A stretch of 51,582 bases of DNA from Clostridiales bacterium (GTDB lineage Bacteria > Bacillota > Clostridia > Mahellales > Mahellaceae), in the NCBI GenBank assembly GCA_030156435.1, contig JASGMM010000005.1, forward strand, positions 1-51,582, in the 5' to 3' direction. Shown piece after piece: positions 18,175 through 22,397 of the stretch. The first letter of the stretch is position 1. Every line of letters starts with the position of its first letter. The notes beneath the pieces were generated by a model. It did no database searches and was not told the origin of the DNA. It was given only the letters and a program-made list of their open reading frames with translations. The position numbers and the translations under genes are program-made.

Positions 18175-20238
18175 CTAATCAATTTTGGTTCCCTCTCCAT
18201 AGACGGTTACCGTGTTCTCTCCTTCATAAATAGTCGCGGCGCTTGAAAGATGAATAATGCCGTCTTCGGAAACAAAGTTAACCTTAACAGATAAAGATAA
18301 TTCTTCGCTTTTAAATTCACAAGTCGCCGTAGCGGTGGCCGGGTTATATTCATATGGCCCGCCCGGTAATAGGAATGAGCCCATATAACTATCATCCGAT
18401 CGGAACCCCAATTGTTCCTCGTGGCGCATAAAGGTAAAGTGTCCCGAGTCGCTTTCTTCACTCACGTTAGAGTTAAATGTCAAGAAATAAGTACCCAAAA
18501 GCTCCTCCAACGGCAGTCCGCCAAGCGTCACCTCCGTTATCGGCGCGGAGAGCTTGAAGCCCAACGTCAGCTCTGGCTCGTCGCTATCGGGGTCGTCGCC
18601 GGGTTTGAACAGCTGCAGCTCCTTGGGGCAACCGGCCTGCAAAAAGCCCAGCAGGGTAAACTTGGTGGAGGCCCCGTTCGCGCCCTTCAGCGTACCGCTC
18701 CAGCTCTCCTTCACCGCGTTTTCGGAAAGCGGGGCGAAGCGCAGGGCGTAGCCGTCATACTGCGACTTCTCGCCATCGGGGACATCCTCCACGATGTTGA
18801 AGGTTATGGTTTGGTTAAAGAACGCTTTGACCTCATTCAACGCGGCCAGATACTCAGCCTCGGCCTTGCGCTGCATATACACGCTAACCGATTGTATTAC
18901 CGGGTAGAGGCGTTCATAAAGCTGCGCCTTGTAAGCGCCCACTAAGGTTTCGATTTCCGCCTGGGTCGGGTCGGGGATGGTGACGGAACCTTTGGTTCCC
19001 TTATCCTCAATATCCGTAACGACAATGGCCTTTTCCATATCGCCCAGCGTCCAGAATACACGGGCGTAGCGGTCTATCTCCGCTTCGATAGCAGCCTTGG
19101 CATCGGCTTCAGCGGGGTTGGCTTCAGCTATGTCGATCAACACCTGTCGCCAATCCTTCAAGCTGCGGGCTTTCCAGCCATTACCCCCATCCAGTGTGCC
19201 GGAGAATTGGTCGTTGAAATAGACATAAACCTCGTCTATCTTATCCATCTTCATGGCAATGCCTTGCTCAAACATACTGCTTATGGTGTAGTCAAAGATG
19301 AACAGGCCGCTGGCGGCAAGCCCCCATGCGGAGGATTCGGCATAGGAGAGCGCCAGCATCGCCGTGTCCTTATACAAACCAAGGGTATCGGCGTCTGTCT
19401 TTTCCGTACTCAGCATAACCGCGCCGATTTTCACTGCCGCCGCCACTTTGCCCAGCTTGTTCATTTTTTCATAGGCCGACGTAGCCAGCGCGGTGTCAAA
19501 GGTCGGGCTGCCGAGGGATGTCATGTTCAGGATCGTACCTGTGAGGTCTGTGGCAAAGCCCGCTTCTCCGGCTGCTCCGGCCACGCCGCCCAAAAATCCG
19601 TTATAGCCGGTGAGGAGCCGCGCCGCGAGATTGACTGCTTCCTCTCCGTCCGCGCCGCCACCCGCCACATATTCGCGAAGCGTTTTCATAGCTTGCTGCT
19701 GGTCAATGGCGGTAACGTCTGAATAAATATCGGTGATATAGGCGCTGCGTTTGCCCTCGTTTCTGACATAGAACGCGCCAAAGGTGGATAGATGGTCGGT
19801 GTAGATGATAAGCTCATTCGTGGCCGCGTCCACCTCGAACAGCACATCCTCCCATTCGCCTGTGGTTTCGTTTTTGTACTTCGCGCCAACGCATTTTGCT
19901 GGGTCCTGCCCCTCCTCGCAGTAGGAGGTATCATAGGGGATACGCAAGGTGATGAAATCATCCAGCTTGCTCATGTCGCCCAGCTTAAAATCGTAGGCTT
20001 CTATCTTGTATCCTTCATCCTTGTTTTCATCCACGGGCAGCTTGGCCACGGTAAATTCCGCTTCACCGTCCAGCACATAATCGCCCAGCTCTATGCCGAT
20101 GCCGTTTGACAGGGAGACGCCTGTAGCCTCCGGCGAAAGCGTTGCCACGTCGCTTTTGCCGCCGACTCCACCGCCGCATCCGGCAAGGCCGCCTAAAAGC
20201 AGCGCCGCCGCGAGTAAAATAGATACTGTCTTTTTCAT
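18175..20238 (-). CDS. Large lipoprotein, paralogue of the zinc-ribbon surface protein
   Basis: 687 residues with a lipoprotein signal peptide ending LAGC (Cys21), so it should be anchored outside the membrane. The domain order matches the outside part of the 842-residue protein: a beta-rich domain (RIPYDTSY ... NETTGEWEDV ... YTDHLSTF), a mostly helical middle, then VPDGEKSQY and LQAGCPKELQLF ... DSDEPELTL. The final part differs. The start MKKTVS was chosen because GGAGGA lies 7 bases upstream. The beta-rich part recalls ZU5/Ig-like modules, but this is only a resemblance. Confidence 0.75.
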   Translation of the reverse strand: MKKTVSILLAAALLLGGLAGCGGGVGGKSDVATLSPEATGVSLSNGIGIELGDYVLDGEAEFTVAKLPVDENKDEGYKIEAYDFKLGDMSKLDDFITLRIPYDTSYCEEGQDPAKCVGAKYKNETTGEWEDVLFEVDAATNELIIYTDHLSTFGAFYVRNEGKRSAYITDIYSDVTAIDQQQAMKTLREYVAGGGADGEEAVNLAARLLTGYNGFLGGVAGAAGEAGFATDLTGTILNMTSLGSPTFDTALATSAYEKMNKLGKVAAAVKIGAVMLSTEKTDADTLGLYKDTAMLALSYAESSAWGLAASGLFIFDYTISSMFEQGIAMKMDKIDEVYVYFNDQFSGTLDGGNGWKARSLKDWRQVLIDIAEANPAEADAKAAIEAEIDRYARVFWTLGDMEKAIVVTDIEDKGTKGSVTIPDPTQAEIETLVGAYKAQLYERLYPVIQSVSVYMQRKAEAEYLAALNEVKAFFNQTITFNIVEDVPDGEKSQYDGYALRFAPLSENAVKESWSGTLKGANGASTKFTLLGFLQAGCPKELQLFKPGDDPDSDEPELTLGFKLSAPITEVTLGGLPLEELLGTYFLTFNSNVSEESDSGHFTFMRHEEQLGFRSDDSYMGSFLLPGGPYEYNPATATATCEFKSEELSLSVKVNFVSEDGIIHLSSAATIYEGENTVTVYGEGTKID

Positions 20239-20257
20239 GTCGGGTTCCTCCATTTCG

Positions 20258-20833
20258 TTACCAATCACTGATTTCCGCACGCACTCCTGTTTCGTGCCAA
20301 ATCTTTTGCGAGATTTTCGTGACGCTTTGCCTGTCGATCAGACCGTGCGGCAGCCGGACGCGCAGCATTTCGCCGTGAGCCCCGAAGGACAGGCAGATAT
20401 GCTCTTTGTCGATTTGTACCTCCCGCAGCCGGACACCGTACACGCCCTCGCAGCCCCACTGATAAACCTTGTTCCCAAGAAGCAAGCCGAAGGCGGATAC
20501 GATGGTTTCCTCCGCCTGTTTTTGTTCTGGCTGATTTCCCAAAGTAACAACTGACGAGGGTACGGTCAGGATCCGACTGTCGTATATAAGTACCTGTTTT
20601 TACAAGGGTGTTTTTTATTGCCCAGAAAGGGTCAGGATCCGACTGTCGTATATAAGTACCGCTGCACCAAGCAACCGGCTTTGTCGGTATAGCAGGAACA
20701 GCGCCACAGCGGTCAAACCGCCGCAGATAATCGCGGCTTCTGTCTTTTGCGTTATGAGAAGCAGCACGGTCAGAAGTATGGCGGCCACGGAAAGCGCGGC
20801 ATATAGATTTCTCCTGTTTTTTATGACTTTCAC
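20258..20833 (-). pseudogene. Two-helix membrane protein split by a 66-bp in-frame insertion with stops
   Basis: The 5' part starts at GTG (20833) after GAGGAGGT and encodes two transmembrane helices, then VLIYDSRILT. After that come LSGQ and a TAA. The same 10 residues VLIYDSRILT recur 66 bases downstream and lead straight into VPSSVVTLGNQPEQKQ and a soluble domain of about 95 residues ending at 20258. Removing one repeat plus the 35-base spacer would give one continuous protein of about 169 residues. The downstream part has no start site of its own. It is therefore a disrupted gene, or a reversibly switched one. Confidence 0.7.
20564..20660 (-). repeat. Pair of identical 31-bp direct repeats inside the split membrane gene
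   Basis: Copies at 20564-20594 and 20630-20660 are identical over 31 bases and are separated by 35 bases containing two in-frame stops. The period, 66 bases, is a multiple of three, so recombination between copies would restore the frame. Confidence 0.9.
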
Positions 20834-20910: not shown

Positions 20911-20941
20911 AAAAAAACTACCTGTACTTTAGTACAGGTAG
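20911..20941 (-). terminator. Intrinsic terminator of the LuxR-type gene
   Basis: A perfect 10-bp stem (20918-20927 with 20932-20941), 4-base loop, followed on the minus strand by seven T. It sits 31 bases after the LuxR-type stop. The same dyad is about 30 bases upstream of the next promoter, so it could also serve as a binding site. Confidence 0.85.
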
Positions 20942-20972: not shown

Positions 20973-22397
20973 CTATGCCTTGGTTTGATTTTTGAGAAGG
21001 GAGCTAATAAGCTCCGCCCGGCTGCCCACATCGTACTTGGAGAAGATATTGCTCACATGGAACTTGACCGTGCTTTCACCGATAGACATGGTGGCGGCAA
21101 TTTCCTTATTGGATTTACCGGCAAGGATAAGTGAAAGCACTTCGTTTTCTCTTTCAGTCAAAGGGTCTATCAATTTTACTTGACAAATGATCGCCGATTG
21201 CTGTTTCTCGCTCATGTCGGCATAAGCGGAAAGGTAAGCATGGTTTTTAAGCAGCATGGTAAGCTGGCGGTTCAGCGGGGGCAGGATCACGAGGGCAACG
21301 CACACCACTGTCAGCGCAATCACCGCCACCTCCGCGTCGGGAAGCCGGATAGAGGTGATAACGACTCCCAGCACATCGCCGCAGAGCACGCCCAGCACAT
21401 TTGCGGAAAGACCGACGCCGAACATTCTGGCGGGGTTTTGTGAGTAATCCAACGTTTCGCCTATAATGCTCCACCAGAACAGGTCGAAGATACCACAGGC
21501 CCCCAGCATCAGCGTATCGATCACGAAATAATCCACAGTGCCTCGGCCAAGCAGCATGAAGGTAATAAAGGCGGCAATTATCATGCCCATGCCAACATAG
21601 AGAAATAGAGAACGCTGCACTCTGTTCTTGGATGAGAGGTTTCGCATAAAAACAAGGGCGACGATATACGGCACAGCCCAATACCAGCTCACAAGGCCGG
21701 TCAAATGATCAAACGCCGGGTTGATGACTTGATACATCAGCCCCGAAGTCACAGTGATGACAGCGACAAACAGGAACAGCACCAGCATCGGCTTTCTAAT
21801 ATCACCGGGAGATTTACGCTCCGTTTCCGGCGTTGTTACCGCAGTCGTTTCCTCGTCAGTTCCGGCAGGGAGTATCGCGGTAAGCGCCCCGCCGAGGATA
21901 AGGCAGAACATGGAGAGAAGCAGCCCGATAGTGTGCGACAAATTGATGGCGACTACGTTGAGAGCAATCATTATGATGTTGGAAAAAATCAACACATCGG
22001 CGCAGGATTTTATCCTCTCATCTTTCAGCGTGTACCTTTTGAGGAAAAAGCCCCATGCCGCCACCGCACAGGCACTGGCATAGCCTGCCGTCACCAGCCC
22101 CACAAACCAAAGCGCGGAGGGCGCGAATAAGAACGGCGCTGTCGCAATCAGGCAAATTGCCATTCCGATTATCATAGCGGATTTTGCCCCGCTCGGCGTT
22201 TTGATAAAGAAGCCACAGGAGAACAGCCCCGCAAAGTGAGCGACAATGGCTGCGAGTATATATGTATTCGACTGTGCGCCAAAGGCGTCTATCGTGCTGT
22301 ATAGTACCTGTCCTTCAAAAACGAAAGAGAGCAGATAGGCAAAGAGGAATGAAAAAGCGGCCACGGACAGCACTCTATAATTTCTGATGCTTTTCAC
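20973..22397 (-). CDS. LuxR-type regulator with N-terminal MFS-like membrane domain
   Basis: 474 residues. The first about 390 form a polytopic membrane domain of around 12 helices resembling a major-facilitator transporter. The C-terminal about 65 are a LuxR/GerE helix-turn-helix: LTERENEVLSLILAGKSNKE, then STVKFHVSNIF. This architecture belongs to a class of membrane regulators common in Coriobacteria and some Clostridia; ligands are mostly unknown. Its ATG overlaps the stop of the upstream excisionase-like gene (ATGA). It probably controls the adjacent operon, which is inference from position. Confidence 0.85.
   Translation of the reverse strand: MKSIRNYRVLSVAAFSFLFAYLLSFVFEGQVLYSTIDAFGAQSNTYILAAIVAHFAGLFSCGFFIKTPSGAKSAMIIGMAICLIATAPFLFAPSALWFVGLVTAGYASACAVAAWGFFLKRYTLKDERIKSCADVLIFSNIIMIALNVVAINLSHTIGLLLSMFCLILGGALTAILPAGTDEETTAVTTPETERKSPGDIRKPMLVLFLFVAVITVTSGLMYQVINPAFDHLTGLVSWYWAVPYIVALVFMRNLSSKNRVQRSLFLYVGMGMIIAAFITFMLLGRGTVDYFVIDTLMLGACGIFDLFWWSIIGETLDYSQNPARMFGVGLSANVLGVLCGDVLGVVITSIRLPDAEVAVIALTVVCVALVILPPLNRQLTMLLKNHAYLSAYADMSEKQQSAIICQVKLIDPLTERENEVLSLILAGKSNKEIAATMSIGESTVKFHVSNIFSKYDVGSRAELISSLLKNQTKA

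What the first reader, a model, noticed from the sequence alone, without database searches (positions are those of the whole stretch)
20258..20833. Membrane gene interrupted by a 66-bp insertion flanked by identical 31-bp repeats; excision would restore the frame
Two identical 31-base copies (20564-20594, 20630-20660) sit in the same codon phase, and the 35 bases between them carry two stops. Loss of one repeat plus spacer gives a continuous protein of about 169 residues with two helices and a soluble domain. This could be a simple inactivating mutation or a slow on/off switch by recombination, at the first gene of the island operon.
Basis: seen in the sequence. Interest (0 to 1): 0.6.

Follow-up and report, generated by a model that had tools for sequence, protein, structure and literature searches.

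The report
Gene broken by a CRISPR-sized insertion
A bacterial membrane-protein gene is broken by 35 foreign-looking bases between two copies of a 31-base stretch, the size of one unit of the CRISPR array elsewhere in this genome, so the likeliest culprit is the cell's own spacer-inserting enzyme hitting the wrong place.

Summary
Two identical 31-bp copies flank 35 bp with two in-frame stops inside a two-helix membrane gene. The repeat occurs only here in the genome. The five closest relatives of the gene carry one copy and lack exactly these 66 bp; 38 of 43 related loci are uninterrupted. So the event is a recent insertion: 31 bp duplicated and 35 bp gained.

The genome encodes a complete type I-C CRISPR-Cas system with a 58-repeat array, repeat 32 bp, spacers 33-37 bp, mode 35. 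A 31-bp duplication around a 35-bp insert is what off-target Cas1-Cas2 spacer integration should leave, within one base. The insert has no source in the genome, is AT-rich against its gene, and both duplication borders begin with G.

Against this: the duplication is 31 bp, not 32; the target does not resemble the I-C repeat or leader; no protospacer was found.

An evolved on/off switch is not, although reversion by repeat recombination is physically possible. The phenomenon is known (Nivala 2018, recalled); a case breaking a chromosomal gene beside a type I-C system would be a new example.

The parts
20258..20833 (-). Interrupted gene: two transmembrane helices followed by a PH-like soluble domain (169 codons without the insertion)
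   Evidence: Sequence; homologues in 22 of 391 class genomes; AlphaFold2 model of homologue L011, pLDDT 81.6; PH/FERM-type matches
20630..20660 (-). Repeat copy on the gene's 5' side, encodes VLIYDSRILT
20595..20629 (.). 35-bp insert, spacer-sized, two in-frame TAA stops, 12 of 35 G+C; unique in the genome
20564..20594 (-). Repeat copy on the gene's 3' side, same codon phase; continues into VPSSVVT as in homologues
20615..20833 (-). Truncated product: two-helix part ending LSGQ-stop, 72 aa from the GTG start
20258..20542 (-). Remaining PH-like domain as a separate open frame (94 aa with a TTG start; initiation not shown)
20911..20941 (-). Intrinsic-terminator-like hairpin (10-bp stem, T tract) between the regulator gene and the interrupted gene; a similar stretch is present in L038, L039 and L041
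   Evidence: sequence, read by eye
20973..22397 (-). Neighbour: membrane protein with a LuxR-type (GerE) C-terminal domain
   Evidence: a LuxR-type motif lies upstream of the homologue in 24 of 37 loci checked
18175..20280 (-). Neighbour downstream: 701-aa lipoprotein-like ORF overlapping the gene's 3' end; its internal ATG start region is conserved in L038 and L039

Best explanation
A 35-bp fragment of DNA not found elsewhere in this genome was inserted into the gene by the adaptation machinery of the resident type I-C CRISPR-Cas system (Cas1-Cas2, with Cas4), acting off target. Cas1-Cas2 joins the two ends of a captured fragment to opposite strands of the target at staggered positions about one repeat-length apart. 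Gap filling then duplicates the stretch between them, here 31 bp. The result is a single repeat-spacer-repeat unit in a protein gene. It adds two in-frame stops, cutting the two membrane helices off from the PH-like domain. Shown: the anatomy, the single-copy state in relatives, the complete I-C system, the size match, the absence of a genomic source. Inferred: the enzyme, the foreign origin, loss of function. The unit is probably not a working CRISPR, since the 31-mer lacks the I-C repeat's strong stem. Reversion by recombination or slippage between the copies is possible but incidental.
For: Five of five closest homologues lack exactly the 66 bp and hold one copy of the stretch. Both copies share the window's own differences from the nearest relative L038 (26 of 31 identical to L038), so the duplication is recent. 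The genome has type I-C cas3, cas5, cas8c, cas7, cas4, cas1 and cas2, with Cas1 matching its model 1-340 of 340, and an array of 58 repeats of 32 bp. Its 57 spacers are 33 bp (4), 34 (11), 35 (27), 36 (9) and 37 (6); insert length 35 is the mode, and a 66-bp unit occurs 11 times. The other CRISPR locus does not fit (37-bp repeats, spacers 36-38). The insert has no second copy at up to 3 mismatches in the genome, which argues against copying from the chromosome. Its G+C is matched or undercut by only 0.6% of 35-mers of the gene but by 9 of 57 native spacers. The 5' base on each strand of the duplication is G, as in the native repeat (5-8% of random 31-mers); off-target II-A integrations in vitro prefer G (PMC6895254, passages). 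In 589 kb of own-genome sample it is the only isolated repeat pair of CRISPR size.
Against: The duplication is exactly 31 bp while all 58 native repeats are 32 bp; 32 would need a later substitution. The target shows no resemblance to the I-C repeat (at most 10 of 32; random mean 7.75) or to the last six leader bases (at most 3 of 6), and local alignment is no better than random (83.5% of random windows reach it), although off-target sites of other systems tend to resemble the leader-repeat junction. No protospacer was found in plasmids, phages, viral contigs or 390 other genomes of the class. That failure says little: the native array also finds no clear phage source. No second such event was seen in the sample.
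Confidence: 0.57

Rival explanations
1. Replication or repair error unrelated to CRISPR: a staggered break with fill-in, or template switching, duplicated 31 bp and captured 35 bp of filler. The size match to the I-C array is coincidence.
For: The target does not resemble the CRISPR repeat. Other isolated repeat pairs of other sizes exist (L047, 35-bp repeats around 72 bp). A 10-nt piece of the insert recurs about 200 bp away.
Against: The 10-nt match is not significant (9.4% of shuffles and 7 of 57 native spacers do as well). No longer template exists within the 51-kb window (longest 11 nt) or in the genome at up to 3 mismatches over the 35 bp. Nothing in this route predicts 31 + 35.
Confidence: 0.28
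2. A recombination-driven on/off switch kept by selection: the direct repeats let the 66 bp be lost, restoring the full protein.
For: Two identical 31-bp copies in the same codon phase, 66 bp apart; both flanking coding parts are still open and similar to relatives.
Against: No relative among the five closest has the second copy. Deletion is one-way: once lost, the 35 bp cannot return, so it is not a two-way switch. No other copies in the genome.
Confidence: 0.05
3. Assembly or strain-mixture artefact.
For: Draft genome of 104 contigs; no reads available here.
Against: The structure spans 97 bp, short enough for one typical read, and the 35 bp are not copied from elsewhere in the assembly. Contamination estimate 0.06.
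Confidence: 0.08

Closest known systems
Non-canonical (off-target) Cas1-Cas2 spacer integration, 'neo-CRISPR' loci (Nivala, Shipman and Church 2018, doi 10.1038/s41564-017-0097-z; not held, content recalled; its reference entry seen)
   Same: Spacer-sized insert flanked by a duplication of about repeat length at a site outside the array, in a genome with an adaptation module
   Different: Type I-C in a clostridial relative rather than type I-E in E. coli; duplication one base short; no resemblance of the site to the native repeat; spacer source unknown
Ectopic spacer acquisition within arrays, S. thermophilus CRISPR3 (PMC7999890; title and abstract start in the listing)
   Same: Integration at a non-leader site
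   Different: There the target is still a CRISPR repeat; here it is a protein gene
Type II-A non-CRISPR integration on plasmids in vitro (PMC6895254, passages read)
   Same: Integration at non-CRISPR sites; preference for G at the attacked position
   Different: Mostly half-site products in vitro, with sites resembling the leader-repeat junction

Membership tests
Off-target Cas1-Cas2 spacer integration | Insert of spacer length for the resident system | tested here: met
   35 bp; native 33-37, mode 35
Off-target Cas1-Cas2 spacer integration | Direct duplication of the target at repeat length | tested here: inconclusive
   31 bp against 32 bp; one base short, or 32 with one later substitution
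Off-target Cas1-Cas2 spacer integration | Adaptation genes cas1, cas2 (and cas4 for I-C) in the genome | tested here: met
Off-target Cas1-Cas2 spacer integration | Empty site in relatives holds one copy of the target | tested here: met
   5 of 5 closest homologues examined
Off-target Cas1-Cas2 spacer integration | Site resembles the native leader-repeat junction (a tendency in other systems, not a strict requirement) | tested here: not met
   only G at both borders agrees
Off-target Cas1-Cas2 spacer integration | Insert derives from foreign or other DNA with a PAM | tested here: inconclusive
   No source found; native spacers also without a clear phage source
Working CRISPR array | Repeat like that of a resident system, able to form its stem | tested here: not met
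   31-mer folds at -3.8 kcal/mol, native repeat at -12.9; no sequence similarity
Site-specific recombination switch | Repeat pair or invertible segment conserved among relatives, or a dedicated recombinase beside it | tested here: not met
   Second copy absent in 5 of 5 closest relatives; neighbouring ORFs scanned gave no recombinase family
Insertion sequence or miniature transposon | Element with further copies and terminal inverted repeats | tested here: not met
   Insert unique at up to 3 mismatches; no inverted repeat in it was reported

The most novel reading that the evidence does not exclude
A type I-C Cas1-Cas2 integrase has acted as a natural insertional mutagen: it put one spacer into a chromosomal protein gene at a site unlike its own repeat, making a one-unit neo-CRISPR and a knockout that can revert by repeat recombination. 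Off-target integration would then be a source of chromosomal mutations recognisable by size alone, and countable across genomes.
Probability: 0.4. Interest if true: 0.65.

Novelty: new member of a known kind. Interest (0 to 1): 0.45.

Why it matters
Off-target spacer integration is well known in vitro and in overexpressing cells, but natural cases are few (recalled). A natural type I-C case that breaks a conserved gene would show that the adaptation machinery mutates its host, and gives a simple size signature (repeat-length duplication around a spacer-length insert, absent in relatives) to count such events. If it is only a repair accident, it is an ordinary broken gene.

Tried and rejected
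Tandem duplication: rejected, because the 35 bp are not a copy of flanking sequence. Templated insertion from nearby: longest match 10 nt within 1 kb, not significant. The other CRISPR locus, L086 (cas1, cas2, cas4, csm-type genes): 37-bp repeats and 36-38-bp spacers do not fit. Resemblance of the 31-mer to the I-C repeat or leader: none. Protospacer search with the 35-mer and with 18-32-nt sub-words: the viral hits, L087 and L128 to L131, match only 20-25 of 35 bases, so chance. Searches of the region itself in plasmids and phages, and of the 31-mer in viral contigs: no match; a protein search of viral contigs gave one distant relative. Alignment-based searches with the full family failed for lack of conserved stretches and were rerun with six closer rows. 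Pfam gave no family above its cut-off for the gene. The repeat-pair background covered 76 sources, 627,488 bases, window included; some sources overlap each other, and the two CRISPR stretches, the two cas1 loci and duplicate pieces of the window locus were left out. The other pairs there were L046 (a scaffold gap with N), L047, L050, L075 and L025. In one search (41 own-genome stretches, 588,569 bases, window included; L085 and L086 left out) the other hits were L089, L097, L101, L106 and L125; L089, L101, L106 and L125 look like short-period (24 to 63 bp) tandem repeats, not checked further.

Full report
What is there. The two 31-bp copies and the 35-bp segment between them are exactly as reported. 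The pair is unique in the genome and is not expected by chance (0 in 100 shuffles). The gene runs on the minus strand from a GTG at 20833, with a good ribosome-binding sequence, to 20258. The 35 bp bring two in-frame TAA codons, so translation from the normal start ends after 72 residues. The two coding pieces together make 169 residues.

What the gene is. Homologues were found in 22 of 391 genomes of the class (own genome included) and at 43 named loci (the two sets overlap). The intact homologue L011 is predicted as two transmembrane-type helices followed by a beta-rich domain and a C-terminal helix (pLDDT 81.6). Structure comparison gives mostly PH, FERM and PTB-type domains (best Z 8.7 for 5umr, rmsd 2.6 over 89 residues; Foldseek best E 4.3e-4), so a PH-like domain is likely but the family is unnamed. 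A LuxR-type motif lies upstream in 24 of 37 loci checked (37 of the 43 loci were given to that test), as in the window. The insertion falls at the junction between the second helix and the PH-like domain.

What the ancestral state is. In the five closest homologues (L038 to L042; 78 to 91% protein identity) the gene is continuous and the alignment lacks exactly 66 bp. The 31-bp stretch is ordinary coding sequence there (mostly VIYDSRILT or similar) and is present once. Of the 43 loci, 38 read through in one frame; the other five are L048, L061, L076 (59 upstream codons, just under my limit of 60), L079 and L080 (masked). So the window has gained 31 duplicated bases and 35 new ones. Both copies are identical and share the window's own differences from L038 (26 of 31 bases match L038), so the event is recent.

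Why CRISPR. A duplication of about 30 bp around an insert of about 35 bp is the outcome of full spacer integration by Cas1-Cas2. The genome has two cas1 genes. One lies in a complete type I-C locus (cas3, cas5, cas8c, cas7, cas4, cas1, cas2) with 58 repeats of 32 bp. Its 57 spacers are 33 bp (4), 34 (11), 35 (27), 36 (9) and 37 (6). The insert has the modal length, and a 66-bp period occurs 11 times in the array. The second locus has 37-bp repeats and 36-38-bp spacers (9 measured) and fits neither number.

Further support. The 35 bp have no other copy in the genome at up to 3 mismatches; the genome is 99.56% complete. Its G+C is 12 of 35, matched or undercut by 0.6% of the 472 35-mers of the gene, but by 9 of 57 native spacers. 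Both 5' borders of the duplication are G, as in the native repeat; 5 to 8% of 31-mers have that by chance, and off-target integrations of another system prefer G (PMC6895254, passages). In 588,569 bases of this genome the window's pair is the only isolated one of CRISPR size.

Against it. The duplication is one base short of the native repeat. The site does not resemble the repeat or leader, unlike the average off-target site in type II-A and, as recalled, in E. coli. No protospacer was found in plasmids, phages, viral contigs or 390 other genomes of the class. The native array also gave no clear phage source (one weak two-piece match at 71%), so this failure has little weight. The chief rival is a repair accident with filler DNA; it explains the non-CRISPR-like site but not the two lengths or the lack of a template.

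The switch idea. Loss of one repeat and the spacer would restore the ancestral length, and direct repeats of this size and spacing are known to delete spontaneously (established knowledge, not tested here). But the change is one-way, the second copy is not in relatives, and nothing marks it as selected.

Literature. The known precedent is Nivala, Shipman and Church 2018 (not held; its content, including putative natural cases in Yersinia pestis and Sulfolobus islandicus, is recalled). Searches with 'neo-CRISPR' (0 papers), off-target integration terms, the title phrase 'Spontaneous CRISPR loci generation' and ectopic integration terms (0 papers) listed no natural type I-C case that I noticed; the library lacks most subscription journals. 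For PMC6895254, PMC9456107, PMC11687729, PMC8616872, PMC8390005, PMC8047081 and PMC6519985 I saw search listings and passages only.

Verdict. A real, recent, gene-breaking insertion, most likely one ectopic type I-C spacer integration (0.57). Its main interest is as a natural example of a known side reaction and as a size signature that can be counted elsewhere.

Noticed in passing
L086:16599-17434: In the second CRISPR locus the Csm4-like gene is split over two overlapping frames (matches to model positions 44-136 and 172-303), so it may be frameshifted.
   Followed up: no
L086:9734-9841: Two degenerate copies (75-78%) of the second locus's repeat sit just upstream of its cas1, about 9 kb from the main array.
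   Followed up: no
window:20911-20941: A perfect 10-bp stem with a T tract separates the LuxR-type gene from the interrupted gene; a similar stretch is present in L038, L039 and L041.
   Followed up: partly
L030 (G023), L028 (G252): Two homologues of the same gene are also broken, by in-frame stops (L030) or loss of the N-terminal part (L028); L028's upstream sequence was read and no repeat-flanked insert was seen.
   Followed up: partly
L097:3656-3721: A 16-bp exact direct repeat around a 34-bp gap in another part of this genome; too short to judge.
   Followed up: no
L047:5015-5156: A 35-bp exact direct repeat around 72 bp in another genome's contig; origin not examined.
   Followed up: no
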